38,839 nucleotides of DNA from the IMG/VR virus record IMGVR_UViG_3300036399_001501, positions 1 through 38,839 of that record, one strand, 5' to 3'. Shown piece by piece: positions 468-30,879 of the stretch. The DNA comes from a virus. The first letter of the stretch is position 1, and each line of letters opens with the position of its first letter. Both the position numbers and the translations under genes were made by a program. The notes beneath the pieces were generated by a model. The model did no database searches. It saw only the letters and a list, made by a program, of their open reading frames with translations, and was not told where the DNA came from.

Positions 468-2141
468 TTAAGTTCCGTATGCGATTTCGACGGCATCGAC
501 GCTGGCGACCCAGCGCCAGATTTCGCTGGTGATGCCTGTGACTTCGACTTTGAGCGCGTCGTTGGTGTCGTTGGCAGAGAGTGCGATGGATGTGCCTGCG
601 GCGTTGTCTGTGCCGATGGTGATGGGCGCGTAAACTTCGCTTGTCGTTCCACTGACATTTTTTAAAGCATACTGGCGCAAGTAGTGTGCTACTGCTGTGC
701 CGTCTGACTTCACGCCAGAGATGTTGATCGTGAAGGCGAAGATTTTCCCGCTGGGGATCGTGAGGCGAGTTGCGCTGCCGTCCAAGAACAATTCGACTGC
801 CGCGTTGGTCGTGGTCTTGTTGCGGAGGACGAAGCGAGCGCGTTGGGCGTCGCCGTTGGCTGCAAATCGACCATTTGCGTGAGATTGTTGCCCGTAGCGG
901 TCTGCTAAACCTGCGAATCCGCCAAGAATGGAAGTGTAGGAAGCAGATGTTGCATTTCCTAAATTAACGTCTCCTCCACCAGCAATAACAGAAGAAAGGC
1001 CTGATGCAACATTTGTTCTGCCGCCACCCACAAAAATTGTGGTTGATGTTGCTGCTGAATTTGAGAGTCCGCCACAAATAACGCTGTATGATCCTGTGCA
1101 CGAATTTGAGTTTCCTCCAACAACCAATCCGAAAATATTAGATGCTGTATTATTTGCGCCTCCTAAAATTGCAGAATTTGATCCGCTTGCAACCTGAGTG
1201 TTTGCTGTTTTTACTAATTGCAAATCCACCGCACTTGCCCCCCTTGCATTTCCACCAACCGTAGTCCCGTCTGGCTTGGGGCCAAGTATAAACGCCCCCG
1301 TGCCTTTCGGCGTGAGGACGAGGCTGGAGTTGGTCTGACCAGCATGGTCGTTGCGGATGGCTACATTGTTCTGGGTGGCGGTGGTAGCATCGTCGATCAC
1401 GATGTCGCTGCCCTGCACAGCATAACCACCTGTGCCATTTGCCCGGGGAACTGCGTTATCTACGGAGCCAGCGGGGCCACCGATAGCACGGATTGCTGTT
1501 CTAAATGAGTCTTGTGCTGCTCCAAATCCAAGTCCATTAAAGCTGATATTAGCACCATTATATAATTCGATGCCTCCAGAACTTATTCCTGTTTTTGCTT
1601 CATCATTATCTGGACTAAAATTTCCAACTTGGAGGTATCCAGCTGAAATATTTAAACCACCTGACATCGTGTCGCCAGTTTTGGCAACCGCTCCAATGTC
1701 GGCGGGAGTGGGCAGCGGAGCAAATGGGGCCCAAAAAGATGGGCTAGAATTTGGCGATTCATCACTTGCTGGCGATACACATAAATAAAAATCACCCGCA
1801 TAGCTCACGACATTATTCACTTGGTAGTTAACCTGGTTGCTATACCCTCCTTTGTATAAAAAGGCTGAGTCAGCTTTGGCCCCTTGCGCTGCGGTTGCTG
1901 CGCCAATGTCAGCGGGCGTGAGCGCATCCGCGCCGCCCGTGGCGTGGGTAGTGGCGTGCGCGTCGGGGGCCCCTCCGCCTCCACCAGCAGAAGGCGTCTG
2001 CGGCACATACTCGTCGATGGAGGACGAGTAAACGAGTGTCTGCCCATTGGTGGGCTTCACCCCGGACACGAAAGTGCCGTTGATCTTGAGCGCGTCCGCC
2101 GTTCCCGAGTCAGGATAGAGGGGCGAGGTGGAAAAACCCAT
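468..2141 (-). CDS. Tail fibre with CBM5/12-like module and YadA-head-like repeats
   Basis: A 557-aa virion fibre candidate. Around residues 95-145 there is a pattern Y-x-V-x-N-x-V-x-Y-x-G-x-x-Y ending in S-x-x-F-W, like the small carbohydrate-binding ChiC/CBM5/12 modules found in phage fibres. Residues about 320-410 carry repeated GG-x-x-N-x-A / S-x-I-x-GG units, which resemble the left-handed beta-roll of YadA-type trimeric adhesin heads. The C-terminal approximately 150 aa are beta-rich. Start ATG at 2139-2141, 3 nt after the stop of the preceding gene, so probably translationally coupled. Role: receptor or surface-glycan recognition, inferred from domain architecture. The central stretch is more AT-rich than its flanks, as expected for a swapped receptor module. 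Confidence 0.8.
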   Translation of the reverse strand: MGFSTSPLYPDSGTADALKINGTFVSGVKPTNGQTLVYSSSIDEYVPQTPSAGGGGGAPDAHATTHATGGADALTPADIGAATAAQGAKADSAFLYKGGYSNQVNYQVNNVVSYAGDFYLCVSPASDESPNSSPSFWAPFAPLPTPADIGAVAKTGDTMSGGLNISAGYLQVGNFSPDNDEAKTGISSGGIELYNGANISFNGLGFGAAQDSFRTAIRAIGGPAGSVDNAVPRANGTGGYAVQGSDIVIDDATTATQNNVAIRNDHAGQTNSSLVLTPKGTGAFILGPKPDGTTVGGNARGASAVDLQLVKTANTQVASGSNSAILGGANNTASNIFGLVVGGNSNSCTGSYSVICGGLSNSAATSTTIFVGGGRTNVASGLSSVIAGGGDVNLGNATSASYTSILGGFAGLADRYGQQSHANGRFAANGDAQRARFVLRNKTTTNAAVELFLDGSATRLTIPSGKIFAFTINISGVKSDGTAVAHYLRQYALKNVSGTTSEVYAPITIGTDNAAGTSIALSANDTNDALKVEVTGITSEIWRWVASVDAVEIAYGT

Positions 2142-2144
2142 GTC

Positions 2145-2936
2145 TTAGATGTAGAGCGCGGTCATGTGCAGGTTTGCCGATCCGAGAGTCTTGGTCGGGC
2201 CGGTCGTGGAGTTTGTCACCGCGATGCCGGCGGAGAGTGGGATGCCCACAAGCCCCGCGTTAAAGGAAAAGGTCGTCTGCGCTGGCACGGCCAGCACCAT
2301 CACAGGCACAGAGCCATCGGCCGGGATCGTGGCTGAGTTGAAAAGGTGGATGAATTGAGCCGGTCCCGAGTTGTAGCCTGAGATCGAGTAGAGCGTGCCA
2401 GCCGAGTTCTTGAATACGCGCCCGCTTTCGTAGGCTGTGCTATTGCCCAGCAGGACGGCGCTTGGCGTCACCGGCAGGGGCGTGCCGGAGGCGGAGCCTT
2501 GCACGGTGAGCACATCCGCGCTTGGCGTGCCAGCCGTGCCCAAGGCAGGTTGCTTGGCAGCAGTGGCCGCACCGGCAGGCAGGGCGGAGCTGGAGACAAC
2601 CACCGCGCCGGTATTGCAAGCCGTCACCTTGCCGTCGAGGCTGGTCAGGCGCGTGGTCTGCGTAGTCTGAGCGGCTTCCGTGGCAGGAGCGGCGATGATC
2701 TTGGCCAGGATCGCGGCCGAGGTCGTTTCCGTGGCAGCGCCGGTGGGAAGCGTGGAGGATTTTACTACGACGCCGTTGGTCGTGCCAGCGGTCGTCTGGT
2801 CGATAGAGACCGTGCCGATTGAGACCGTGCCGGAAAAGGCCAGGCCGACATCGAGTTTGCCGTCGGAGGTGACAGCGACTGGGCGCACGATGCCGGACGC
2901 GTCACGGCCAGCAATGAGGGAGGCGGGGGAGTTCAT
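2145..2936 (-). CDS. Virion structural protein, fibre/baseplate-like
   Basis: A 263-aa Ala/Thr/Ser-rich protein with low lysine and few charged residues. The N-terminus (SLIAGRDASGIVRPVAVTSDGKL) resembles surface-exposed virion proteins found beside fibres. Internal near-repeats (VVVKSSTLPTGAATE and VVVSSSALPAGAATA) point to a duplicated beta-structured unit. No catalytic motif is visible. Its ATG at 2936 lies 6 nt downstream of a TTGACAC/TATAAT-like box (2943-2963), and its stop lies 3 nt before the large fibre start. Probably a tail or fibre-base protein; the family is unassigned. Confidence 0.7.
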   Translation of the reverse strand: MNSPASLIAGRDASGIVRPVAVTSDGKLDVGLAFSGTVSIGTVSIDQTTAGTTNGVVVKSSTLPTGAATETTSAAILAKIIAAPATEAAQTTQTTRLTSLDGKVTACNTGAVVVSSSALPAGAATAAKQPALGTAGTPSADVLTVQGSASGTPLPVTPSAVLLGNSTAYESGRVFKNSAGTLYSISGYNSGPAQFIHLFNSATIPADGSVPVMVLAVPAQTTFSFNAGLVGIPLSAGIAVTNSTTGPTKTLGSANLHMTALYI

Positions 2937-2942
2937 GGGTTA

Positions 2943-2963
2943 ATTATAGGTAGAGGGTGTCAA
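2943..2963 (-). promoter_or_regulatory. TTGACAC-N-TATAAT box (site 3)
   Basis: On the minus strand TTGACA and TATAAT occur 9 nt apart, ending 6 nt before the ATG of 2145-2936. Almost the same string occurs at 9366-9386 and 34669-34689. The 9-nt spacing is too short for an ordinary sigma70 promoter, so its function is open. Confidence 0.45.
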
Positions 2964-2970
2964 GTGGGGG

Positions 2971-3678
2971 TTATTGGAAGGTGGCGGAGTAGCGGCGAAC
3001 CTCGCCTCGGCGGAGCCAGGCGTCGTCCATGCGCTGCATCAAGACGCCTTCGGCGCGGACGAATTGGAACTGGCTCTTGTCGTATTGCCCGTCCTCAGCC
3101 AGCGTCTCGGCAACGGCGTAGAATTTAATGTAGTCCGCCAGGAAAGTCGGGATGCGGTGGCGGAGCCAGAACGTGGTATCTGTCGGGAGGTTGCCGGTCG
3201 TCGCTTGGATTGCCTCGTAGCAGTCGCCGGTCGTGTTGTAATAAACCAAGTCGCCCTTGGCATAAGTCGTGCCGGAGCTAAAAGCCGTGTCGGTAAACCG
3301 GGGAATGGGCAGGGCAAAGAACACATACACATCGCCGGTCGTGTAAGCCGCGTCTGTGATGGTGAGGGCGTCATCCGTCAAAACAAATTCCAGCTCATCG
3401 GCGATGCCCGTGGCGGCGGGGTCCGAAGCATACACAGCCTCGACAGCGCCAATCGGCGTGAGGCCAGTTTGGTAGAGCGCAATGCTCCCTGCCACCACCG
3501 CTCTCTGCTCGATCTGCGTGGTGTCGGGCCAATCATAAAACCCCCAAGCCAGCGCGGCCGCCGTCGTCGCATACTCGGCAATCGCCGATGCCTGCGAAGG
3601 CAGCAAACTCTGCTCAGGATCAATGCCCATGCGCTGGATGATCCCATCGCGGATCGTGCGGTAAGGTGTCGTCTTCAT
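2971..3678 (-). CDS. Head-tail connector/adaptor-like protein
   Basis: A 235-aa protein starting with ATG at 3678, in a 4-nt ATGA overlap with the portal stop, which supports co-translation with the portal. The N-terminal approximately 60 residues are helical (TIRDGIIQRMGIDPEQ, AIAEYATTAAALAWGFYDW), as in short-tailed phage adaptor proteins placed right after the portal. Residues about 140-175 (YAKGDLVYYNTTGDCYEAI followed by a FW motif) resemble the carbohydrate-binding-like module of the fibre at 468-2141. Function is inferred from position and fold pattern: it probably forms the ring between portal and tail. The adaptor assignment is moderate, and a tail-tube-like role is possible. Confidence 0.7.
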   Translation of the reverse strand: MKTTPYRTIRDGIIQRMGIDPEQSLLPSQASAIAEYATTAAALAWGFYDWPDTTQIEQRAVVAGSIALYQTGLTPIGAVEAVYASDPAATGIADELEFVLTDDALTITDAAYTTGDVYVFFALPIPRFTDTAFSSGTTYAKGDLVYYNTTGDCYEAIQATTGNLPTDTTFWLRHRIPTFLADYIKFYAVAETLAEDGQYDKSQFQFVRAEGVLMQRMDDAWLRRGEVRRYSATFQ

Positions 3679-21082: not shown

Positions 21083-21430
21083 ATGAAAAAGACCAAACCC
21101 AAAACGCAATTTTCAGTCCGACTCCCCGAGGAGGTCATTACATTGCTTGACGAAATCGCCGCAAATACCGGCCTCAACATCACCCGCAACAATGTCGTAG
21201 AGCAGGCGTGCGAATGGTTTGTCCGCACCTACCGAGCAAACGGCGACCGCTCCCTCACCGAAGCCGACATGCGCGACCTCGAAGCCTTCCTGATCGAAAG
21301 ACTCGCACCGGGAAAAGCTCTTCTCAAAAGCCAGCCCGACTCTGCTGGTGTCAAAACCCTGAGAGCGTCCGCGAGTTTAGATTCTACGCCCTCAACAGCT
21401 ACGACCAAAAGCTCCCACACGGCTGGATAG
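21083..21430 (+). CDS. RHH-type regulator, rightward (candidate repressor)
   Basis: A 115-aa protein. Residues about 9-55 (TQFSVRLPEEVITLLDEIA ... NNVVEQACEWFVRTY) fit a ribbon-helix-helix fold with the strand QFSVRLP and two helices; the rest is a flexible Ser/Thr/Ala-rich tail. It is divergent from the other RHH gene and is the first gene of the lysogeny module, so a CI-like repressor role is a reasonable inference. The ATG at 21083 lacks a Shine-Dalgarno and may be leaderless. A longer open frame upstream to 20762 is not gene-like. Confidence 0.65.
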   Translation: MKKTKPKTQFSVRLPEEVITLLDEIAANTGLNITRNNVVEQACEWFVRTYRANGDRSLTEADMRDLEAFLIERLAPGKALLKSQPDSAGVKTLRASASLDSTPSTATTKSSHTAG

Positions 21431-22795: not shown

Positions 22796-23890
22796 ATGAG
22801 AAAACATGGCGAGATTACGGTGGAATGGCGGGCGGCGAAGAATGCTTGGTATTTTCGCGTGCAGGAAAATGGCAAGCGGGTGGCGAAGTCTACTGGCGTG
22901 CGGATCCAGTCTGCGAGCGGGCGGGCGGCGGCTGTGGCTAAGGCTAAGGCGATTGCGGGGGCGCTGGCTACCGCCGACGAGCACAAGATTGCTGCGGTGG
23001 TGAAGCGTCCGGGCTTTGCGAAGTGCGGCGAGGTGGCGCAGATTTACAAGGAGCATGGACCGGCGGCGTCCGTGACGAAGAGCCTGAGCCGGTTTGCGGC
23101 TTTTGTTAAGGAGGTGACCAGTCGGCAGGATTGGGAGGAGCAGAGCACGCACCAGGTGTTGACGGCCTCGGCGATGCGGGGATGGATTGAGGCCCAGAAA
23201 AAGGCGGGGCGCTCGGAGAGCGGCATTCACACTGATGTGCAGACGATCAAGAGCGTGGTGGCCCGCAAAAGATTTTACCTGTTTGAAAAATTGAAGCTGC
23301 CGAATCTGACGGATTTTTGGGCGGTGTCGGGGGGCTCGGCGACGACGGAGGGCTATCAGCCTATCGACCGCGAGGCGCTGCGGCGTATGGATCGGGCGGC
23401 GAGGATCCCGCTGCGGCGTTTTGATGCGCGGGTGTGGGCTATCTACTGGCTGATGCGCAAGGCGGGCCTGCGGAATGACGAGGTGCAATATCTCAAGTGG
23501 AGCTGGGTGGATTGGCAGCCTGACGGGACGGCGGATCTGGTATTGATCCGGCGCGAGGATTGGACTCCGAAGGGCCGGAGCGGGCGTGTGCCGCTGCGGG
23601 CGAGGATGCTGAGGCTGATCCAGAAGGCGCTTGGAGGCGAGGGCGAGTATGTCATCCCCAGGACAACCAAGACGGAGGCTTTTGACCTGACGCATTACGG
23701 GATCAATGAATTTGTGAGGCAGTTTATTCCTGACGGGGAAAAGGGCGCTTACAATTTGCGCAAGGAATACGGTGCTCAGATTGCGGGGCGCGATGGCATA
23801 GAGGTGGCGAGCCGGTTGCTACGGCATAGGGACATCCAGACGACGTTCAACCACTACCACAATCTTATTAAGCGGCCGAAGCCGCTTTAG
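22796..23890 (+). CDS. int: Tyrosine recombinase, phage integrase
   Basis: A 364-aa integrase. N-terminal arm-binding region, core-binding SAM-like part (about 80-165) and catalytic domain (about 185-364). Catalytic residues: R226 (GLRNDEV), K259 (TPKGRSGRV), R322 in YNLR, H344 (LLRHRDI), and nucleophile Y354 (HYHN). The usual box II His is Tyr319, so the H of HxxR is replaced. It would recombine attP with a tRNA-Arg-like attB. ATG 22796 has TGAGGAAACAATATA upstream, a weak Shine-Dalgarno. The stop converges on the end of the minus operon in a shared hairpin. Confidence 0.92.
   Translation: MRKHGEITVEWRAAKNAWYFRVQENGKRVAKSTGVRIQSASGRAAAVAKAKAIAGALATADEHKIAAVVKRPGFAKCGEVAQIYKEHGPAASVTKSLSRFAAFVKEVTSRQDWEEQSTHQVLTASAMRGWIEAQKKAGRSESGIHTDVQTIKSVVARKRFYLFEKLKLPNLTDFWAVSGGSATTEGYQPIDREALRRMDRAARIPLRRFDARVWAIYWLMRKAGLRNDEVQYLKWSWVDWQPDGTADLVLIRREDWTPKGRSGRVPLRARMLRLIQKALGGEGEYVIPRTTKTEAFDLTHYGINEFVRQFIPDGEKGAYNLRKEYGAQIAGRDGIEVASRLLRHRDIQTTFNHYHNLIKRPKPL
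23870..23887. terminator. UUCG-tetraloop hairpin at the convergent ends
   Basis: AAGCGGC pairs with GCCGCTT; on the minus strand the loop is TTCG closed by C-G, an exceptionally stable tetraloop. It sits at the 3' ends of the integrase and of 23887-24069, i.e. where both operons converge, so it may act as a bidirectional terminator although no U-tract is present. Confidence 0.55.
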
Positions 23891-24069
23891 CGTTGGCTGT
23901 AGCGGTCGTTCTCCCGCATGGTTCGTGCTTCGCCGCGTGTGCGGAGCCAGAAGTATTCTTGCCGTAGGGCGGTGACTTGGGGCGGCATGTTGAGCCGGTA
24001 TCTGGCTTTGACGATGCCTTCGATGTCTTCCGCCTGGCGTTTCTTAACGCGAAATTTGACCTTGCCCAC
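23887..24069 (-). CDS. Hypothetical small basic protein at the operon end
   Basis: 60 aa with high Lys/Arg content (KVKFRVKKRQAEDIEG ... RLNMPPQVTALRQE). Overlaps the 3' end of the giant-protein gene by 26 nt and its stop by the convergent hairpin. No domain recognised. A DNA- or RNA-binding role is possible from charge only. Confidence 0.5.
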   Translation of the reverse strand: MGKVKFRVKKRQAEDIEGIVKARYRLNMPPQVTALRQEYFWLRTRGEARTMRENDRYSQR

Positions 24070-27000
24070 TTGACTCGGCGGCTGCGCCAGATAGGTTTAT
24101 TCCACCTGGGGTGCCTACAGAACCTGCCTGAATGACAGCATCCGTAGTAGCCGGCGTCGCGTTGGTTGTGGCGTTTGTCGGAGACCCTGACAAAGCGGCT
24201 GGAGGTGGAAGTAATTCCACTTTTGCTACCCCCTTGAATTGCCGATCGCGCAGTTCAAGGGGGTATTGCGTTACAAAACCAGAATCAAAAGGTTCTTGGT
24301 CAAGGAAAACTCCTTCTCTAGTTGTAACCACCATGTGGGTTTTTCTTCTATATTTTCTGAAATAGAGCACTTCAGAGCCTGCATAAACTTTTACCGGAGC
24401 GTTTTGGATTGTTTCTGGGACAGCTGCTAACCATTGAGCTTTTTCAGGATCGAGTTCACGCACGTTGCTCCCCTTTTTTAACTCGCGACCTGTGGCATGT
24501 TCTGCGCGGTTCTTGATTTTGTCTGAGTAGGCGCCTCGAGTTTGCGGATTGGACAAAAGCACCGTAACGCCTTTGCGATCTACGGCGCTTTTAACTTCGG
24601 TTAAAAATCGAGTTGCGTTTACAACAACCTCGTCTTTAGACCGACCGATTGTAAAAGCGGGAGCATCGACATCCTCACTTGGCAAAAAACGCTTCACACT
24701 ATTCCAGTTGTCGCCGTTTTTAACTTTTGACCAATTATCAACGATGCGACCATCAGGCATTCTGACATCCGGCATTGCCTGCCCTAGCAGGTCTTTTGAC
24801 AAGTCTGGGAGCGGGTTTGATATTTCCGGAAACAAATTGCCGTTGGCTTTATTGTAGTCGAAGTGGAAACCCTGGCGACCGGTTCCGATGGCGGCGTCCA
24901 CGCGGTCGAGGCGGAATTGTTTGATCGCGCTGCCAGGCCCGAAAGAACCATTGAGCGGGTTTTTATTACGATTGTTGTTGGTGGCAATTCCGACAAGGGC
25001 ATTAAGGGCGTCGCGCTTTACGGTGCCAATTCCCGCTTCTCCCGGCAGGTTGGCACGGTGGTTTTCCATCCATTGTTTTAGGTCGGATTCAATCTGGCCG
25101 ATCTCCCAATTAAACGGCGCAAGGGCCTCATTGCGGTTGTTAATGGCGCGCAAAGCGCGGTTGCGGAATTGGGTGAGGTCCAGGACGACGGCGTTGAGAT
25201 TACCAGCTTTTGTGAGTTGCCATTCAAAAGGGACTACCTCGCGCGTTATGGCCACGAGATTACCAAGGTTTTTGATGCGAAATGCTCCAGTGTCTCCGCT
25301 GCCTATGGCGTGGTATCGCACCTGCATACTCTCACCAGTCTGGCCAAATTGCTCGAACTGGCGGGCAAAGTTTCGGATGTGCGGCATGAATCCGTTTAGG
25401 AAGTCAAATTGCGGCGGTAAAATCTTACCACGGATTAAGACCCTGCCATCAGAAGTTTTCTTGGGACCGAGAATTGGGTTGTTTGGTTCAAGTAGTTTTG
25501 ATCCACCAAGGGCTTTGACCTGTTGCCGGATTTTGTCGTGGGCAGCGTTCAGGTCGCGTTGATCGCGCAGCATGGCTTGGCCAGTGGCGGGGTTTTCAAT
25601 GGCGAATGCGTTGGCTTTTATTCCATCTCCCCGGTCGTAGAATGTGACTTGTGGGTTGTTGGAAATGTCGCTGGCGCGAGCGGCCGGGGCTACGCGGACT
25701 CCGGCTGGCTTTTCATGGCCTGGGTTATTGGCCCATTGGCGGTAATTTGAGATGTAGGTTCCGAGCTGCTTGACAAGCGCTTTGTCAGTGGCGAGTAGAG
25801 GGTTTTTAGCAAAGAGGTCGGCGGGCTTTTCTAGCGGGGCTCCGGTTTGAGGATCGATGCGGACTCCGCTGGCTGAAAGGGCCCGCGCTTGAGCCCCAAG
25901 TATAGCCTCGGCAAAAGTGAGAAAATTTTCTCCAGCCGGGGCTCCTCGGCGAATGGCGTTGAAATCCATTGATTCGCTGGCCTTGGCAAAAGTCTCGGCA
26001 AAAATCTCGTCTCGGGCCCAGTCCAAGCCATCCATATCGCCCCGGGCAAGGCCTCCTTGCGAGAGGTTATCCATCTCGCTTGTAAGCGTGGCAGGAGATA
26101 TTTTGAGATCTTCACTTGGAAATGCTTGGGCATTTTTAGCGAGGATGATGTTGCTGGCATATTCAGCCGCTCGTGCCTTGATGCCATCCAGCCCATAGGT
26201 TTTATCCACCCAAGCGCGGGCCGCATATTTCTGCTGCCCATCAAGGGCACCGCTGGCAATCAGAGCGTGGCCGAATTCATGCGGTTCGATACCTTGGCGT
26301 TTTGCATCGAGGTTTATATAGACCTTGGCACGCTCCCCGGCGGGGGCCTGCACAAATAGCCCAGCAGACCCTGCTCCGCCATTGGCTGCCACATTGGCAT
26401 TGTAGTCGGTGGCGTTGAGCGGGATGAAATCCAGACCATTGCGGAATGTGCCTTGAAGCGATGCAAGTTTTATGAGGCTCTCAGGCGTCTGCGTGGACAT
26501 CATTTTACCTACATCGCCACCGGCAAGTTCCACATCGACAAGCATGCGGGAAACATCGGAGATGGCAGCTTGTTGGCGGCGTTGTTGCAGGCTTGTGAAG
26601 CGATCCACGCCACCTCCTAAAGCACCAAAGGCGGCACCGGCTCCCAACATCGCGGCGGCTTCTTCGTCATCACCGGCATTGGTTGCAAGCAGAGCAAAAG
26701 GGGCGTTGACAGCCGTGCCTTTCACAGCACCCTTGGCAAGCGCACTGGCTCCACGCACCGATTGCACAATGGTGGGATTTGAAAGCCTGCCCATAAGCCC
26801 ACGCATCTGCGGTGACAGGGATTGCTCAGCCGCGAGGCGGGCAGGAGTGCTTTCGATCGGAATAAAATTAGTCGGGCGCTCCAGCACCTCCTTGAAGACC
26901 TTCGGCACAGAGGGATTGGCCAGCACAGCGGCGCGTGCGGCTTGGTCCAGACCATTGGTGGCATCGGCAGATTCGCGCAGGATGATCTTTGCAGCCCCGG

Positions 27001-28243
27001 CTCCGGTTTCAATTTTGCGGAGCACGCCCATGCCTGCCTTGTAAGCCGGGTAGAATCCGGCAATAGCAGCCGTGACTTCCGGAGGCGCTCCGAGAGTCGC
27101 AGCCCCTGCCGCCAAGCCCCCGCCCACGCTGGAGCGGGTGAGAGTTGTTACTACATTACCAGCAGTAGAAGGAGTAAGGCCGGTCGTATTTGTAACGACA
27201 TCGACAAAACGGTTTGCCAAAGCTTCGCCGCCATCCGCAAGGCCTCCAGCGACCTTTCCAATTACTCCAGCAGTTTTAGCGCTGACCGTTTTGCCAAACC
27301 GAGAAACGCCGAGGGCTTTTGCTCCTGCACCAAAAGGGATCAAGTTCGTCGGGTCTGCCACAATTTCCAAAACTCCTGCTTGAGCAATGTTTGGAGTCTC
27401 CTGCTGGTTTCTTCCTGTCACTAAGCGCGTGAGCAATTCGGTAGGCGCAGTCTGCTCTCCCAGGGCTTGGTATTCGGCATCGATGCCCTTTTTGGCAATG
27501 TAGTTCTGAAACTCGTAGTCCTTGATGTCGTCCTCGGTTGTCGGGCGGAGTTTGCGTCCGGCATCCAATGCGTTTTGGAGTTGGACTTCGTTGTTGTAGA
27601 AGAAAAAATCGCCGGTCTGCTCATCGCGGTATTTTGGAGCGCCCTGCATAGCCTCTGCCGCCCAGCCGCCAAGCTGCATCGCACCGAGCGCGGCACGGCC
27701 GATGCCGGTCTGAAGCGTAGCTGCAGATTTGGCCGATGTCTCAAGCGGCGAAAAGACAGCCGTATTAAACGCATCAAGCGCCGTGACGACGAGCCCCCCT
27801 ACGGCCTTGGCGGCGAGTTCTGCGGTGCCGGGCAGTTTGCCTTCGGCTTTGAGCCGGTCCTTGGTGGCCTTTAGGTCGAAATACTCGTCGCGTGTTGGCG
27901 CATAGTTGGGGTCGTCAAAGAGACGGGCAGCTTCCATGTCCAACTGCTCGGTAGTAAATTCCTTTGGCTTGCTGGCTTTTTCCAGCACATCGAGTTCCTC
28001 TGTGGTGTATTCCCGCGATGCTTCAAGCTGGGCCACAGGCCCCATGGCGGGCCCACGGGATAGAGACGCCCCCTTCCCGCTGATCAATTCGGGGGAGCCT
28101 GTCGGTTCAGGCGCTGTGAGTGTGCTTGCTACGGGAGCAGAGGCCGTTGGGGGAATAGGGCTATCCTGCACCGGCAGCTCGGCTGCGGCCATGGCGTCCA
28201 ACTCCTCGGTGGTGAATTCTCTAACGAGGGATCCAGTTGCCAT
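24044..28243 (-). CDS. Giant virion/ejection protein with zincin and nuclease-like ends
   Basis: A 1,399-aa multi-part protein. Residues about 8-110 carry three (E)F/Y-TTE-E/Q-LD units; a hydrophobic/Gly-rich region follows (about 150-550). H655-E-F-G-H659 with a later DEIFAET fits an HExxH metallopeptidase (zincin). The C-terminal approximately 130 aa (VKVYAGSEVLYFRKYRRKTH then DQEPFDSGFV) resemble the nuclease-like ends of phage polyvalent proteins. No such function is proven. Such proteins are often packaged and ejected to process host targets. It overlaps neighbours on both sides. Confidence 0.65.
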   Translation of the reverse strand: MATGSLVREFTTEELDAMAAAELPVQDSPIPPTASAPVASTLTAPEPTGSPELISGKGASLSRGPAMGPVAQLEASREYTTEELDVLEKASKPKEFTTEQLDMEAARLFDDPNYAPTRDEYFDLKATKDRLKAEGKLPGTAELAAKAVGGLVVTALDAFNTAVFSPLETSAKSAATLQTGIGRAALGAMQLGGWAAEAMQGAPKYRDEQTGDFFFYNNEVQLQNALDAGRKLRPTTEDDIKDYEFQNYIAKKGIDAEYQALGEQTAPTELLTRLVTGRNQQETPNIAQAGVLEIVADPTNLIPFGAGAKALGVSRFGKTVSAKTAGVIGKVAGGLADGGEALANRFVDVVTNTTGLTPSTAGNVVTTLTRSSVGGGLAAGAATLGAPPEVTAAIAGFYPAYKAGMGVLRKIETGAGAAKIILRESADATNGLDQAARAAVLANPSVPKVFKEVLERPTNFIPIESTPARLAAEQSLSPQMRGLMGRLSNPTIVQSVRGASALAKGAVKGTAVNAPFALLATNAGDDEEAAAMLGAGAAFGALGGGVDRFTSLQQRRQQAAISDVSRMLVDVELAGGDVGKMMSTQTPESLIKLASLQGTFRNGLDFIPLNATDYNANVAANGGAGSAGLFVQAPAGERAKVYINLDAKRQGIEPHEFGHALIASGALDGQQKYAARAWVDKTYGLDGIKARAAEYASNIILAKNAQAFPSEDLKISPATLTSEMDNLSQGGLARGDMDGLDWARDEIFAETFAKASESMDFNAIRRGAPAGENFLTFAEAILGAQARALSASGVRIDPQTGAPLEKPADLFAKNPLLATDKALVKQLGTYISNYRQWANNPGHEKPAGVRVAPAARASDISNNPQVTFYDRGDGIKANAFAIENPATGQAMLRDQRDLNAAHDKIRQQVKALGGSKLLEPNNPILGPKKTSDGRVLIRGKILPPQFDFLNGFMPHIRNFARQFEQFGQTGESMQVRYHAIGSGDTGAFRIKNLGNLVAITREVVPFEWQLTKAGNLNAVVLDLTQFRNRALRAINNRNEALAPFNWEIGQIESDLKQWMENHRANLPGEAGIGTVKRDALNALVGIATNNNRNKNPLNGSFGPGSAIKQFRLDRVDAAIGTGRQGFHFDYNKANGNLFPEISNPLPDLSKDLLGQAMPDVRMPDGRIVDNWSKVKNGDNWNSVKRFLPSEDVDAPAFTIGRSKDEVVVNATRFLTEVKSAVDRKGVTVLLSNPQTRGAYSDKIKNRAEHATGRELKKGSNVRELDPEKAQWLAAVPETIQNAPVKVYAGSEVLYFRKYRRKTHMVVTTREGVFLDQEPFDSGFVTQYPLELRDRQFKGVAKVELLPPPAALSGSPTNATTNATPATTDAVIQAGSVGTPGGINLSGAAAESSGQGQISR

Positions 28244-29249
28244 TGGGCTGTTGGATAAATGTTTTGCCGCCGATTACGCGGGTGGCGGGTTGTTGGGGTT
28301 GGGCCGTTGCGGATGGCGGTGCGGCTTGGGCAGTATTAGCAGCGCTCGCTTGCGGGGCGTTTGCTTGGGAGCGGGCTTGGGCTTGGGCGAGAATGCCGTC
28401 AAAGTCCATGAGGGCTTTATTAAACCCCTCTTCTGTCTGGCGCGGATTGAGTCGCGCAATGGCAGCTGTGGCTTTTGCGCCTTCCTGCTCGGTGATTTGG
28501 CCTCCGCCTTTGAGATTATTGAAGGCTTGCATGAATGTGCCCCCCTGCACCTGTTCGAGCAAAGTGTAAAAGTCCGCAGCCCTAGTGCCGCTTATAGGTT
28601 CTTTCTTTATGCCAAAAAAGTATTCTGGCCCCTTCGCTCCAACCGAAGTGCTCATACCGGGATGGCTTTTTAGCTCCGCCAACATCTGTCGCATATTGGA
28701 AATCTCGGAGGATGCCGCTTGCTTGCGTGATTCCATTTGCGCGACTTCGGCTTGCGATTTCTGCAAGTCGAGCTTGGCATTTTCCAAGCGAGCCTGAATT
28801 TCCGGCGAGTTTACGATCATGTTATTCACCATATCCACCTTGCGGCCGTCGCTGGTTGTCACGGTCTGGACTTGGTTGGCGCGGGAGCGTTTCACGCTGT
28901 CCTGGTAGATGCGCACGGCGTTGTTGGAAGTAATCTGACCGCCGGAAGACATGGCAGCGCGAACGACTTCCTTCTGGTGCGGAGACATGGCATTCCACTG
29001 CTCTTTGCTTGTAATGCGAATGCGACGGCCTGCGGCAAGCTGTGCGGCCAAGTCGTCCAACGGTTCCTCTTCCTGACCGTCCATGGCATCCATCGCGCTC
29101 CCGACAGGCTGTTGTGCCGTGGCGGGATCGCTGGGGTCGAGAGCCGATAGCGCCGGGCCGGTAGGAAGGATGCTGTTTGGGTCCGGGTCGTTGGTAATCG
29201 ACGGCAACGGCACGGTGTTTACGAAAGCAGTTTGTGCGCGGGAGGACAT
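28221..29249 (-). CDS. Internal virion-like protein
   Basis: 342 aa, helical and Gln/Ala-rich, with a coiled coil (RLENAKLDLQKSQAEVAQ, about 155-190), a GGGQITEQEGAKATAAIARL motif near 250-275 that I recall from ejected virion proteins, and a C-terminal Pro/Gln/Ala tail ending KTFIQQPNGNWIPR. ATG 29249 follows a TTGACA/TAAAAT-like pair (29256-29275). Overlaps the giant gene by 23 nt. A DNA-ejection or core role is inferred. Confidence 0.65.
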   Translation of the reverse strand: MSSRAQTAFVNTVPLPSITNDPDPNSILPTGPALSALDPSDPATAQQPVGSAMDAMDGQEEEPLDDLAAQLAAGRRIRITSKEQWNAMSPHQKEVVRAAMSSGGQITSNNAVRIYQDSVKRSRANQVQTVTTSDGRKVDMVNNMIVNSPEIQARLENAKLDLQKSQAEVAQMESRKQAASSEISNMRQMLAELKSHPGMSTSVGAKGPEYFFGIKKEPISGTRAADFYTLLEQVQGGTFMQAFNNLKGGGQITEQEGAKATAAIARLNPRQTEEGFNKALMDFDGILAQAQARSQANAPQASAANTAQAAPPSATAQPQQPATRVIGGKTFIQQPNGNWIPR

Positions 29250-29255
29250 GGCAAT

Positions 29256-29275
29256 ATTTTACTGCCAGATGTCAA
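29256..29275 (-). promoter_or_regulatory. Weak TTGACA-N8-TAAAAT pair (site 4)
   Basis: TTGACA and TAAAAT are 8 nt apart, ending 6 nt before the ATG of 28221-29249, like sites 1-3, but it overlaps the end of the upstream coding sequence (GIDIWQ stop), so it may be chance. Confidence 0.25.
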
Positions 29276-29753
29276 TACCATCGGCGACTTCAACCGAGAG
29301 GGCTGGATTGGAACCTCCGCCACCACCGGCGAGGGCGGCTTTCTGATTCGCGAGGATTCTGGCTTGATTGTATTGGTTGTTTTGATTATAGCGGGTTTGG
29401 AGATTTTCCATTGCGGGCATAAAAGCCATCATGGCTCCTGCCATTTTGTCAGGGTTGTTTCCTGCCTTACCCAGTTCCGCTTGGAGCGCTTGCCCGAGCG
29501 CCATGCCCTCTTTTCCATACTGCGGGAGGATGGCTTGCATAGCGGAGCCTGTGGCTTGCACGCCTTCGAGCTTGGCCGTGGTTTCCCGAGATTTGGTAAT
29601 GGCTCCGGTGATGCCGCCTGCAAAATTTGTCACGCCGCTGGCTATGCCTTGAGCGAGGGCTTCATTGCCAGCGGCTTTGATTTCGGCGGAGCGGGCTTTG
29701 GAGGCTCCGAGGATCTGGCCGGAGTTGTCGTTGACGGTAGGGTTGTAGGTCAT
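29259..29753 (-). CDS. Virion-module helical protein
   Basis: 164 aa: N-terminal polar, then Ala/Gly helices (EALAQGIASGVTNFAGGITG) and a Gln/Asn-rich end. The ATG at 29751-29753 lies in an ATGA overlap with the YkgJ-like gene, which shows the start although the open frame extends to 30020. Typical of internal virion proteins next to T7 gp14-type genes; function unproven. Confidence 0.65.
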   Translation of the reverse strand: MTYNPTVNDNSGQILGASKARSAEIKAAGNEALAQGIASGVTNFAGGITGAITKSRETTAKLEGVQATGSAMQAILPQYGKEGMALGQALQAELGKAGNNPDKMAGAMMAFMPAMENLQTRYNQNNQYNQARILANQKAALAGGGGGSNPALSVEVADGIDIWQ

Positions 29754-30046
29754 GGTGTGGGGAGGTGTTTGGATTGGCGGGCTTCTATGCAGAGTGGGCT
29801 GCCAGGCTGGAAGGACCGGCAGGCGGATGGGCGAGCATGATATATTGCGCAGGCGACTCCTCGGCCCACCTCGCCACGGAGGGCGATGCAGCGGCCGCAG
29901 GGGTCGGTTCGTAGGAGGGGATAGTCTGTGCGTATCCAGTCGTGCGGGATGCCGGTGGCGTCGGAGCGGTCGCGCTTGAGCACGGGCCAGCTCCAACGGT
30001 GCGAGCAACATGCGCCACACCGTTGACAGTCGTATTGGGATTCCAT
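29750..30046 (-). CDS. YkgJ-family metal/Fe-S-binding protein
   Basis: A 98-aa Cys-rich protein. CQRCGACC near residue 7, CGRC near 50, then CAIYHARPSACRSF near 66-80 make the eight-cysteine YkgJ/UPF0153 pattern that binds metal or Fe-S. ATG 30046. Most of the gene (262 nt) overlaps, in a different frame, the 3' end of the PAPS-reductase-like gene; the two may be frameshifted parts of one product. Its partner is probably that enzyme. Function of the family remains unclear. Confidence 0.7.
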   Translation of the reverse strand: MESQYDCQRCGACCSHRWSWPVLKRDRSDATGIPHDWIRTDYPLLRTDPCGRCIALRGEVGRGVACAIYHARPSACRSFQPGSPLCIEARQSKHLPTP

Positions 30047-30879
30047 GTGGGTTTGAAGCCTTGCTCTGGGATGGCGTTGTCTTCGTAGGGGGCGAGGTGG
30101 GCGATGCTGTTCACCTCGCTGCGGAGCTTGGGGCACCACACGGGGGCTGAGAGGTGGCGATTCACGCAGTTCCAGCAGATGGGGTAGTAGTCGGCGTTGT
30201 GGGATTTGTCCTGCTTGTGGCCCCACTTGCCCGAGGCGCGGTCGTAGCGGGTGGGGTCCATCGGGACGCCTTCGGCTTCGAGGTAGTCGAAGATGTCGTC
30301 GTCGGTCCAATGCCGCATGAGGAAAAGCTGGGTAGGGCTGTCATCCACACGGCGCACATCCTGGGCGAGCGGCACGCCGCCTTTGATGAGATCGACATCG
30401 GCGCTTTTCTGCCCGTGGAATGCGGCGTCCCACGGCCAGTTGAATGAGCCGGTGGGGCGCTGGAGGACATCGGTGAGGCCGCACAGGTAGGGCTCGCCTT
30501 CCTTGGGGTGCTCGGTGCCGAGGCTGAGGACGAGGGCGCTGTGGTGGCCCCACTGGTAGTATTTGAGGAAATCGAAACGGGCCTCGCCGGTCTCGATGTC
30601 GAACCCGTCTTGGATGGCGATGCGGCCGGGAGCGTAGTCGAAAAGGGTCAAGTCCCACCAGCGGGCGAGGAGGTCGCTGTGGGCGTAGCGGTGGCGGAAG
30701 CGGGGTTCACGCCATTGGACGCAGGGGAGCCGCACGCCGAGCTTGAAGATGAGGAGGTGCAGCATGGCGGTGCTGTCCTTGCCGCCGCTCCAGAGGACGA
30801 CGGGGTTGCGAAATTCCCGCAGCCAATACTCGGCGCGGGTCAAAGTTTCATCGACGAGGTTTTGCAGGTGTTGTGTCAT
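29785..30879 (-). CDS. PAPS-reductase-like PP-loop enzyme
   Basis: 364 aa as an open frame. PP-loop SGGKDSTAMLHLL at residues 31-43, then an N-type ATP-pyrophosphatase layout and a Cys-His C-terminal core (YPICWNCVNRHLSAPVWCP, about 245-263). Phage PP-loop enzymes of the CysH/DndC kind use adenylated substrates, sometimes for DNA modification. Beyond residue about 278 the sequence is antisense-like, low-complexity and out of frame with YkgJ, so the true C-terminus is probably near 30046. ATG 30879 is in a TAATG overlap with the upstream gene. Confidence 0.75.
   Translation of the reverse strand: MTQHLQNLVDETLTRAEYWLREFRNPVVLWSGGKDSTAMLHLLIFKLGVRLPCVQWREPRFRHRYAHSDLLARWWDLTLFDYAPGRIAIQDGFDIETGEARFDFLKYYQWGHHSALVLSLGTEHPKEGEPYLCGLTDVLQRPTGSFNWPWDAAFHGQKSADVDLIKGGVPLAQDVRRVDDSPTQLFLMRHWTDDDIFDYLEAEGVPMDPTRYDRASGKWGHKQDKSHNADYYPICWNCVNRHLSAPVWCPKLRSEVNSIAHLAPYEDNAIPEQGFKPTWNPNTTVNGVAHVARTVGAGPCSSATAPTPPASRTTGYAQTIPSYEPTPAAAASPSVARWAEESPAQYIMLAHPPAGPSSLAAHSA

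What the first reader, a model, noticed from the sequence alone, without database searches (positions are those of the whole stretch)
24044..28243. 1,399-aa protein: repeated TTEELD units, HExxH zincin and nuclease-like tail
Three short (E)F/Y-TTE-LD motifs near the N-terminus, an HEFGH centre at 655-659 and a toxin/nuclease-like C-terminus look like a packaged polyvalent protein. The N-terminal motifs could be packaging or cleavage signals.
Basis: inference. Interest (0 to 1): 0.75.

Follow-up and report, generated by a model that had tools for sequence, protein, structure and literature searches.

The report
Phage effector protein with swappable modules
This phage gene encodes a large protein, probably injected into the host, built as a fixed protease-containing body plus a string of interchangeable modules, and almost every seam between modules carries the same six-residue tag (GQAMPD), which looks like both a swap joint and a possible cutting site.

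Summary
The protein is a phage polyvalent/ejection-type protein: last gene of the virion operon, next to a P22-like injection protein, ending against an integrase. In 80 viral contigs and one Verrucomicrobiota MAG contig its ~1,140-aa head is conserved (HExxH and the E746/E750 helix nearly invariant). The N-terminal units are a real three-copy motif whose sequence changes in concert between lineages.

Beyond the head the protein is a string of exchangeable modules (about 26 recurrent types, 52 adjacencies), and nearly every seam carries one hexapeptide, [GA]Q[AGF]MP[DE], mostly GQAMPD (131 copies versus 0.02 expected). Homology switches at this 18-bp site: sequences 97-98% identical on one side are unrelated on the other. 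The peptide is kept with different codons in two families, and also sits in a second gene (RHH-like) of the same phages.

Best explanation: an injected modular effector polyprotein whose seam is a recombination joint (shown by sequence) and probably a processing site for the embedded zincin (inferred). The nuclease-like tail is unproven.

The parts
24044..28243 (-). polyvalent/ejection-type protein, 1,399 aa (P0001)
   Evidence: homologues
28187..28222 (-). N-terminal unit 1, REFTTEELDAMA (aa 8-19)
27980..28015 (-). N-terminal unit 2, REYTTEELDVLE (aa 77-88)
27929..27964 (-). N-terminal unit 3, KEFTTEQLDMEA (aa 94-105)
25970..26434 (-). predicted zincin (MPTase) core, aa 604-758: strands 604-609, 629-632, 639-644, helix 653-663 with HEFGH, helix 741-758 with E746/E750
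   Evidence: AlphaFold model, conservation, fold description in PMC5512222
26267..26281 (-). HEFGH zinc motif (aa 655-659)
24839..25726 (-). conserved domain of unknown fold, aa 840-1135 (model pLDDT mostly 70-90)
   Evidence: no significant PDB fold match
24767..24784 (-). module seam GQAMPD (aa 1154-1159), GGGCAGGCAATGCCGGAT
   Evidence: seam property
24047..24766 (-). exchangeable C-terminal module (aa 1160-1399); its homologue in L227 is internal and followed by another GQAMPD and a 517-aa terminal module
28221..29249 (-). upstream gene related to P22-like injection / internal virion proteins (phrog_2534), overlapping the start of P0001
22796..23890 (+). convergent tyrosine integrase just downstream

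Best explanation
P0001 is a virion-borne, injected polyvalent effector protein of a temperate phage, probably of Verrucomicrobiota. Its fixed head has a three-copy N-terminal docking motif, an embedded zincin protease and a conserved 300-aa domain. Behind the head hangs a string of interchangeable effector modules, and nearly every seam carries [GA]Q[AGF]MP[DE]. Shown by sequence: the seam is the exact crossover point for module exchange within and between phage families, and its peptide is conserved across lineages that use different codons. Inferred: the seam is also where the embedded zincin (or another protease) cuts, so that modules are released separately, either in the capsid or after injection. 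The window's copy is a short form with one module after the seam.
For: Head conserved in 80 viral contigs and one MAG contig. Zinc ligands nearly invariant, and the predicted core (three strands, HExxH helix, Glu helix) matches the published polyvalent MPTase description. Seam motif: 131 copies beyond the head versus 0.02 expected, 1 in 94,000 head residues; present in 55 of 61 complete proteins with at least 60 aa beyond the head. Crossovers: homology ends mostly 17-24 nt after the motif start, or starts mostly from -9 to +4; flanks 97-98% identical on one side, unrelated on the other. Heads 28-37% identical share terminal modules 54-80% identical. Peptide conserved with different codons between families and between genes. 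All 48 near-exact DNA copies in 449 kb are in frame, in just two genes. ART-PolyVal and LPD3 modules. Virion-operon position. Prophage in a Chthoniobacter MAG beside a GH5 gene.
Against: No biochemical or virion data. One relative (L052) has HEFGE instead of HExxH yet keeps the seam, and a clade with a good zincin (L214, L216, L217, L219) has degenerate seams. Proteins with no modules (L173, L187) keep the zincin, so it must also have another role. Within a family the seam DNA is more uniform than codon usage predicts, which recombination alone could explain. The head model has mean pLDDT 58. The motif is absent from 6 of the 61 extended proteins.
Confidence: 0.5

Rival explanations
1. The hexapeptide is only a recombination joint and flexible linker. 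Phage or host recombination acts on the short shared DNA between otherwise unrelated modules; the peptide is spread by hitch-hiking and is never cut.
For: Crossovers fall exactly on the 18-bp site. Seam DNA is homogenised within each family far beyond codon bias: GGCCAAGCCATGCCGGAT 20 of 37 in family 1, GGGCAGGCGATGCCGGAT 20 of 25 in family 2. Seam kept with a degenerate HExxH in L052.
Against: The peptide is kept while codons differ between families and between genes. At the head end the linkers of the two families cannot be aligned except for xQxMPD. The motif also sits as an optional segment in the linker of an unrelated RHH-like protein. No out-of-frame or intergenic copies.
Confidence: 0.3
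2. The seam is a recognition site for a protein other than the zincin (a host protease, an unidentified virion maturation protease, or a chaperone/ejection partner). The zincin is itself an effector against host proteins.
For: Small-Gln-small before Met-Pro resembles generic protease P3-P1 preferences (inference). The zincin is kept in relatives with no modules at all, L173 and L187. PMC5512222 allows an effector role for MPTases. The RHH-like protein carries the same peptide but no zincin.
Against: No other protease gene was recognised in the families searched in the window.
Confidence: 0.17
3. The mosaic proteins are metagenome assembly artefacts joined at a repeated 18-mer.
For: Most relatives are metagenome contigs and the shared joint is short.
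Against: An 18-22 bp repeat is shorter than usual assembly k-mers (general knowledge). The same adjacencies recur in many contigs from different samples, a MAG shows the same design, and modules differ between families by ordinary divergence.
Confidence: 0.03

Closest known systems
Polyvalent proteins of phages and conjugative elements (Iyer et al. 2017, PMC5512222)
   Same: Large multidomain phage protein, embedded zincin MPTase, ART-PolyVal and LPD modules in relatives, domain mosaicism, position by virion genes; the authors propose that MPTases process such proteins.
   Different: In the passages returned (12 of 33) and the Peptidases section I read, no inter-module motif is described, and 'linker' does not occur in the text. 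Here a repeated hexapeptide marks nearly every seam and is also found in a second gene.
Shuffling of protein fragments in phages (Nat Commun 2023, PMC10684548)
   Same: General description of ongoing domain exchange in phage proteins.
   Different: 'Polyvalent', 'ejection' and 'linker' have no occurrences in the text; I did not read the whole paper.
P22-type ejection proteins
   Same: P0001 lies directly after a homologue of a P22-like injection protein.
   Different: P0001 has no detectable sequence relationship to them.
Polymorphic toxins (Rhs, CDI, MafB)
   Same: Constant N-terminal part, variable C-terminal modules, conserved peptide at the junction (general knowledge).
   Different: Several modules in series with a seam at each; no immunity gene seen downstream in the window (integrase instead); virion rather than secretion context.

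Membership tests
Polyvalent proteins (PMC5512222) | several biochemically unrelated domains in one polypeptide | tested here: met
   Family level: zincin head plus ART-PolyVal (4.9e-9), LPD3 (7.7e-13) and DUF7178 (6.9e-7) modules. In P0001 itself only the zincin is identifiable.
Polyvalent proteins (PMC5512222) | MPTase with HExxH and a Glu on a later helix after a three-stranded core | tested here: met
   the L205 clade has HEALGH/HEGLGH, the HExxxH form also described there
Polyvalent proteins (PMC5512222) | carried with the DNA and injected early | not testable with these tools
   only indirect: operon position beside an injection-protein homologue
Polyvalent proteins (PMC5512222) | match to a curated polyvalent-domain profile in the protein itself (supporting feature, not required by the published definition) | tested here: not met
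   no Pfam or PHROG match for P0001; relatives' modules match
Polymorphic toxins | adjacent immunity gene | tested here: not met
   downstream gene in the window is a convergent integrase; related integrase found downstream in 31 of 81 loci. Immunity-like genes were not searched for in the other loci.
PBECR/BECR nucleases (for the P0001 tail) | profile or fold match | tested here: inconclusive
   no profile match; model pLDDT 35 with helices then strands

The most novel reading that the evidence does not exclude
These phages carry a true bacterial-virus polyprotein: an injected protein whose own zincin cuts at GQA|MPD to free a chosen set of effectors. The same cut site in the phages' RHH-like DNA-binding protein would put that protein under control of the incoming protease, and the cut site doubles as the recombination seam from which new effector sets are assembled.
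Probability: 0.25. Interest if true: 0.88.

Novelty: new variant of a known kind. Interest (0 to 1): 0.62.

Why it matters
Polyvalent proteins were proposed to be processed by their zincins, but I know of no cut site having been recognised. A short, repeated, conserved seam gives a concrete candidate substrate to test, a simple sequence tag for splitting huge unannotated phage proteins into modules, and a view of how phages build new effector combinations at one fixed joint. The three-copy N-terminal motif gives a parallel testable candidate for a packaging or docking signal.

Tried and rejected
HMM searches of the whole protein (Pfam, PHROGs, NCBIfam, PADLOC) and PDB sequence searches gave nothing for P0001. 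The tail model was too poor for a fold search, and two searches for viral homologues of the tail found none. I suspected that the long terminal modules share a DNA-glycosylase-like (HhH-GPD) pattern; profile comparisons and PDB profile searches did not support it, apart from a short M4/M6 similarity. I first read the L205 clade as having lost the zincin together with the motif; it has the HExxxH form described in PMC5512222, so that co-loss argument was dropped. Weak papain-like fold matches to the head were rejected: E-values above 2 and no Cys among the invariant columns. A DNA-only site was considered: all copies are in frame and codons differ between lineages. The extra reading frame after the P0001 stop has no relatives in the fetched loci. 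No paper in the library contains 'GQAMPD'.

Full report
What is there. The finding's coordinates hold one 1,399-aa ORF on the minus strand. The three [FY]TTE[EQ]LD units and HEFGH at 655-659 are as described. The record is a virus contig of 38,839 bases with terminase, major head protein, replication genes, an integrase and a tail collar protein. P0001 lies directly after a gene related to P22-like injection / internal virion proteins and ends against a convergent integrase. In relatives the upstream structural genes keep this order (72 of 81 loci for the gene at 30879, 69 for 32594, 38 for the injection-like gene), and a related integrase lies downstream in 31. P0001 has no match in 50,697 phage records, so no isolate in that collection carries it. 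One relative, L227, lies on a contig binned as Chthoniobacter flavus (Verrucomicrobiota) together with an integrase and a GH5 cellulase (E 2.3e-49), so the host is probably in that phylum; a binning error cannot be excluded.

The head. Searches with the protein and then with a head alignment gave 28 and 80 viral contigs (the 28 are largely contained in the 80). They form a close family (F1, about 50-89% identical to P0001) and more distant ones (F2 and others, about 28-45%). Across 55 heads H659, A660 and E746 are invariant and H655, E656, G658 and E750 at least 90% conserved. The AlphaFold model (mean pLDDT 58) places three strands, a helix with HEFGH and a later helix with E746/E750, which is the polyvalent MPTase arrangement described in PMC5512222. 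The domain 840-1135 is modelled more confidently but has no significant PDB fold match. The best viral structure neighbours include proteins named ART-PolyVal-like (E 3e-10) and large-polyvalent-protein (E 7e-6); TM-scores are low because the model is long and loosely packed.

The N-terminal units. The triplicate is not local to this protein. In a set of 30 non-redundant N-termini most score above all 60 shuffles, but the unit itself differs by lineage: REFTTEELD in P0001, FDPxTAxPVEE in L021, PxGFELDxEE in L187, TDxQLDxxxE in L199, RPLSDxEMDxLE in L219. Copies within a protein resemble each other more than copies between lineages. This suggests a three-fold short linear motif that co-evolves with a partner; a docking or packaging signal is the likeliest reading (inference).

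The modules and the seam. Homology between P0001 and its relatives stops at about residue 1,160. Beyond it each protein carries one to five modules, and nearly every seam carries GQAMPD or a close variant: GQAMPE, GQAIPD and GQATPD in F1; AQGMPD, AQAMPD and AQFMPD in F2. In proteins fetched by head homology alone, not by the motif, [GA]Q[AGF]MP[DE] occurs 131 times in 46,876 residues beyond the head against 0.02 expected, and once in 94,192 head residues. These counts are not independent, since relatives share seams by descent. The motif is present in 55 of 61 complete proteins with at least 60 aa beyond the head. Clustering gives about 26 recurrent module types and 52 distinct ordered adjacencies, with long modules of roughly 420-900 aa usually last and short ones in the middle. 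Identified modules are ART-PolyVal (PF18760), LPD3 (PF18798) and DUF7178; most are unknown. L173, L187, L205 and L212 end at the head with no module.

The seam is the crossover point. For pairs sharing only the upstream side, DNA homology ends mostly 17-24 nt after the motif start; for pairs sharing only the downstream side it begins mostly from -9 to +4. Pairs 97-98% identical over 600 bp upstream are unrelated downstream, and pairs 97-100% identical over 240 bp downstream are unrelated upstream. F1 and F2 heads are only 28-37% identical, yet the same terminal modules are 54-80% identical between them.

Peptide or DNA? Within a family the seam DNA is more uniform than codon usage allows, as expected if recombination spreads it. 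Between families the codons differ at several degenerate positions while the peptide is kept (GGCCAAGCCATGCCGGAT against GGGCAGGCGATGCCGGAT). The same peptide, mostly encoded GGCCAAGCCATGCCCGAC, occurs in a second, unrelated gene of F1 phages, a small RHH-like protein (Pfam support only sub-threshold). There it is an optional segment between the RHH-like domain and a conserved tail: present in 12, absent in 6 otherwise similar genes. All 48 near-exact DNA copies in 449 kb of F1 loci are in frame in these two genes. I conclude that the peptide probably has a function of its own and that the seam DNA is also the recombination joint.

The window's copy. P0001 has one seam (1154-1159) and one 240-aa module. 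In L227 the homologous module (63% identical) is internal and is followed by SSSQGQAMPD and a 517-aa terminal module; P0001 ends SSGQGQISR-stop at the matching place. So the window's gene is a short form that lacks the next module.

How it probably works. Shown: a conserved zincin-type head, exchangeable modules, a fixed seam. Inferred: packaging and injection (from operon position and relatives), and cutting at the seam by the embedded zincin or another protease. Points against zincin cutting are L052 (HEFGE, seam kept), a clade with a normal zincin but degenerate seams, and module-less relatives that keep the zincin. I put about 0.9 on the modular design with the seam as exchange joint, and about 0.5-0.6 on the seam also being a protease site, most likely for the embedded zincin.

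Novelty. Polyvalent proteins, their mosaicism and the idea of zincin processing are known (PMC5512222). A repeated hexapeptide delimiting the modules, its use as the exact exchange joint, its presence in a second gene, and the three-copy N-terminal motif are not described in the parts of that paper I read, and the literature searches found no paper naming the motif.

Noticed in passing
window 21086-21430 (+): RHH-like protein of the window (RHH_1 E 0.01, below cutoff) in the position where F1 relatives encode their RHH-like gene; it has no GQAMPD segment.
   Followed up: partly
L028:12657: The polyvalent ORF ends GQAMP followed at once by a stop codon, as if the next module had been lost exactly at the seam.
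   Followed up: partly
window 29259-29783 (-): Small gene between the collar region and the injection-like gene with a weak Ntox22 (bacterial toxin 22) match, E 0.001, below Pfam cutoff.
   Followed up: no
window 29785-30879 (-): 364-aa ORF whose first 50 residues match PAPS-reductase-type profiles (phrog_424 E 7e-10) while the rest does not; possible fragment or fusion.
   Followed up: no
L227:5269-7847: Integrase next to a GH5 cellulase on a Chthoniobacter MAG contig, the prophage-host link for this phage group.
   Followed up: partly
window 468-3678 (-): Two nearby ORFs (468-2141 and 2971-3678) have weak carbohydrate-binding module (CBM_5_12) matches, below cutoff.
   Followed up: no
window 23887-24069 (-): Open frame overlapping the P0001 stop (GKVKFRVKKRQAEDIEGIV...), no relatives found in the fetched loci; possibly a frameshifted remnant or a small gene.
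   Followed up: partly
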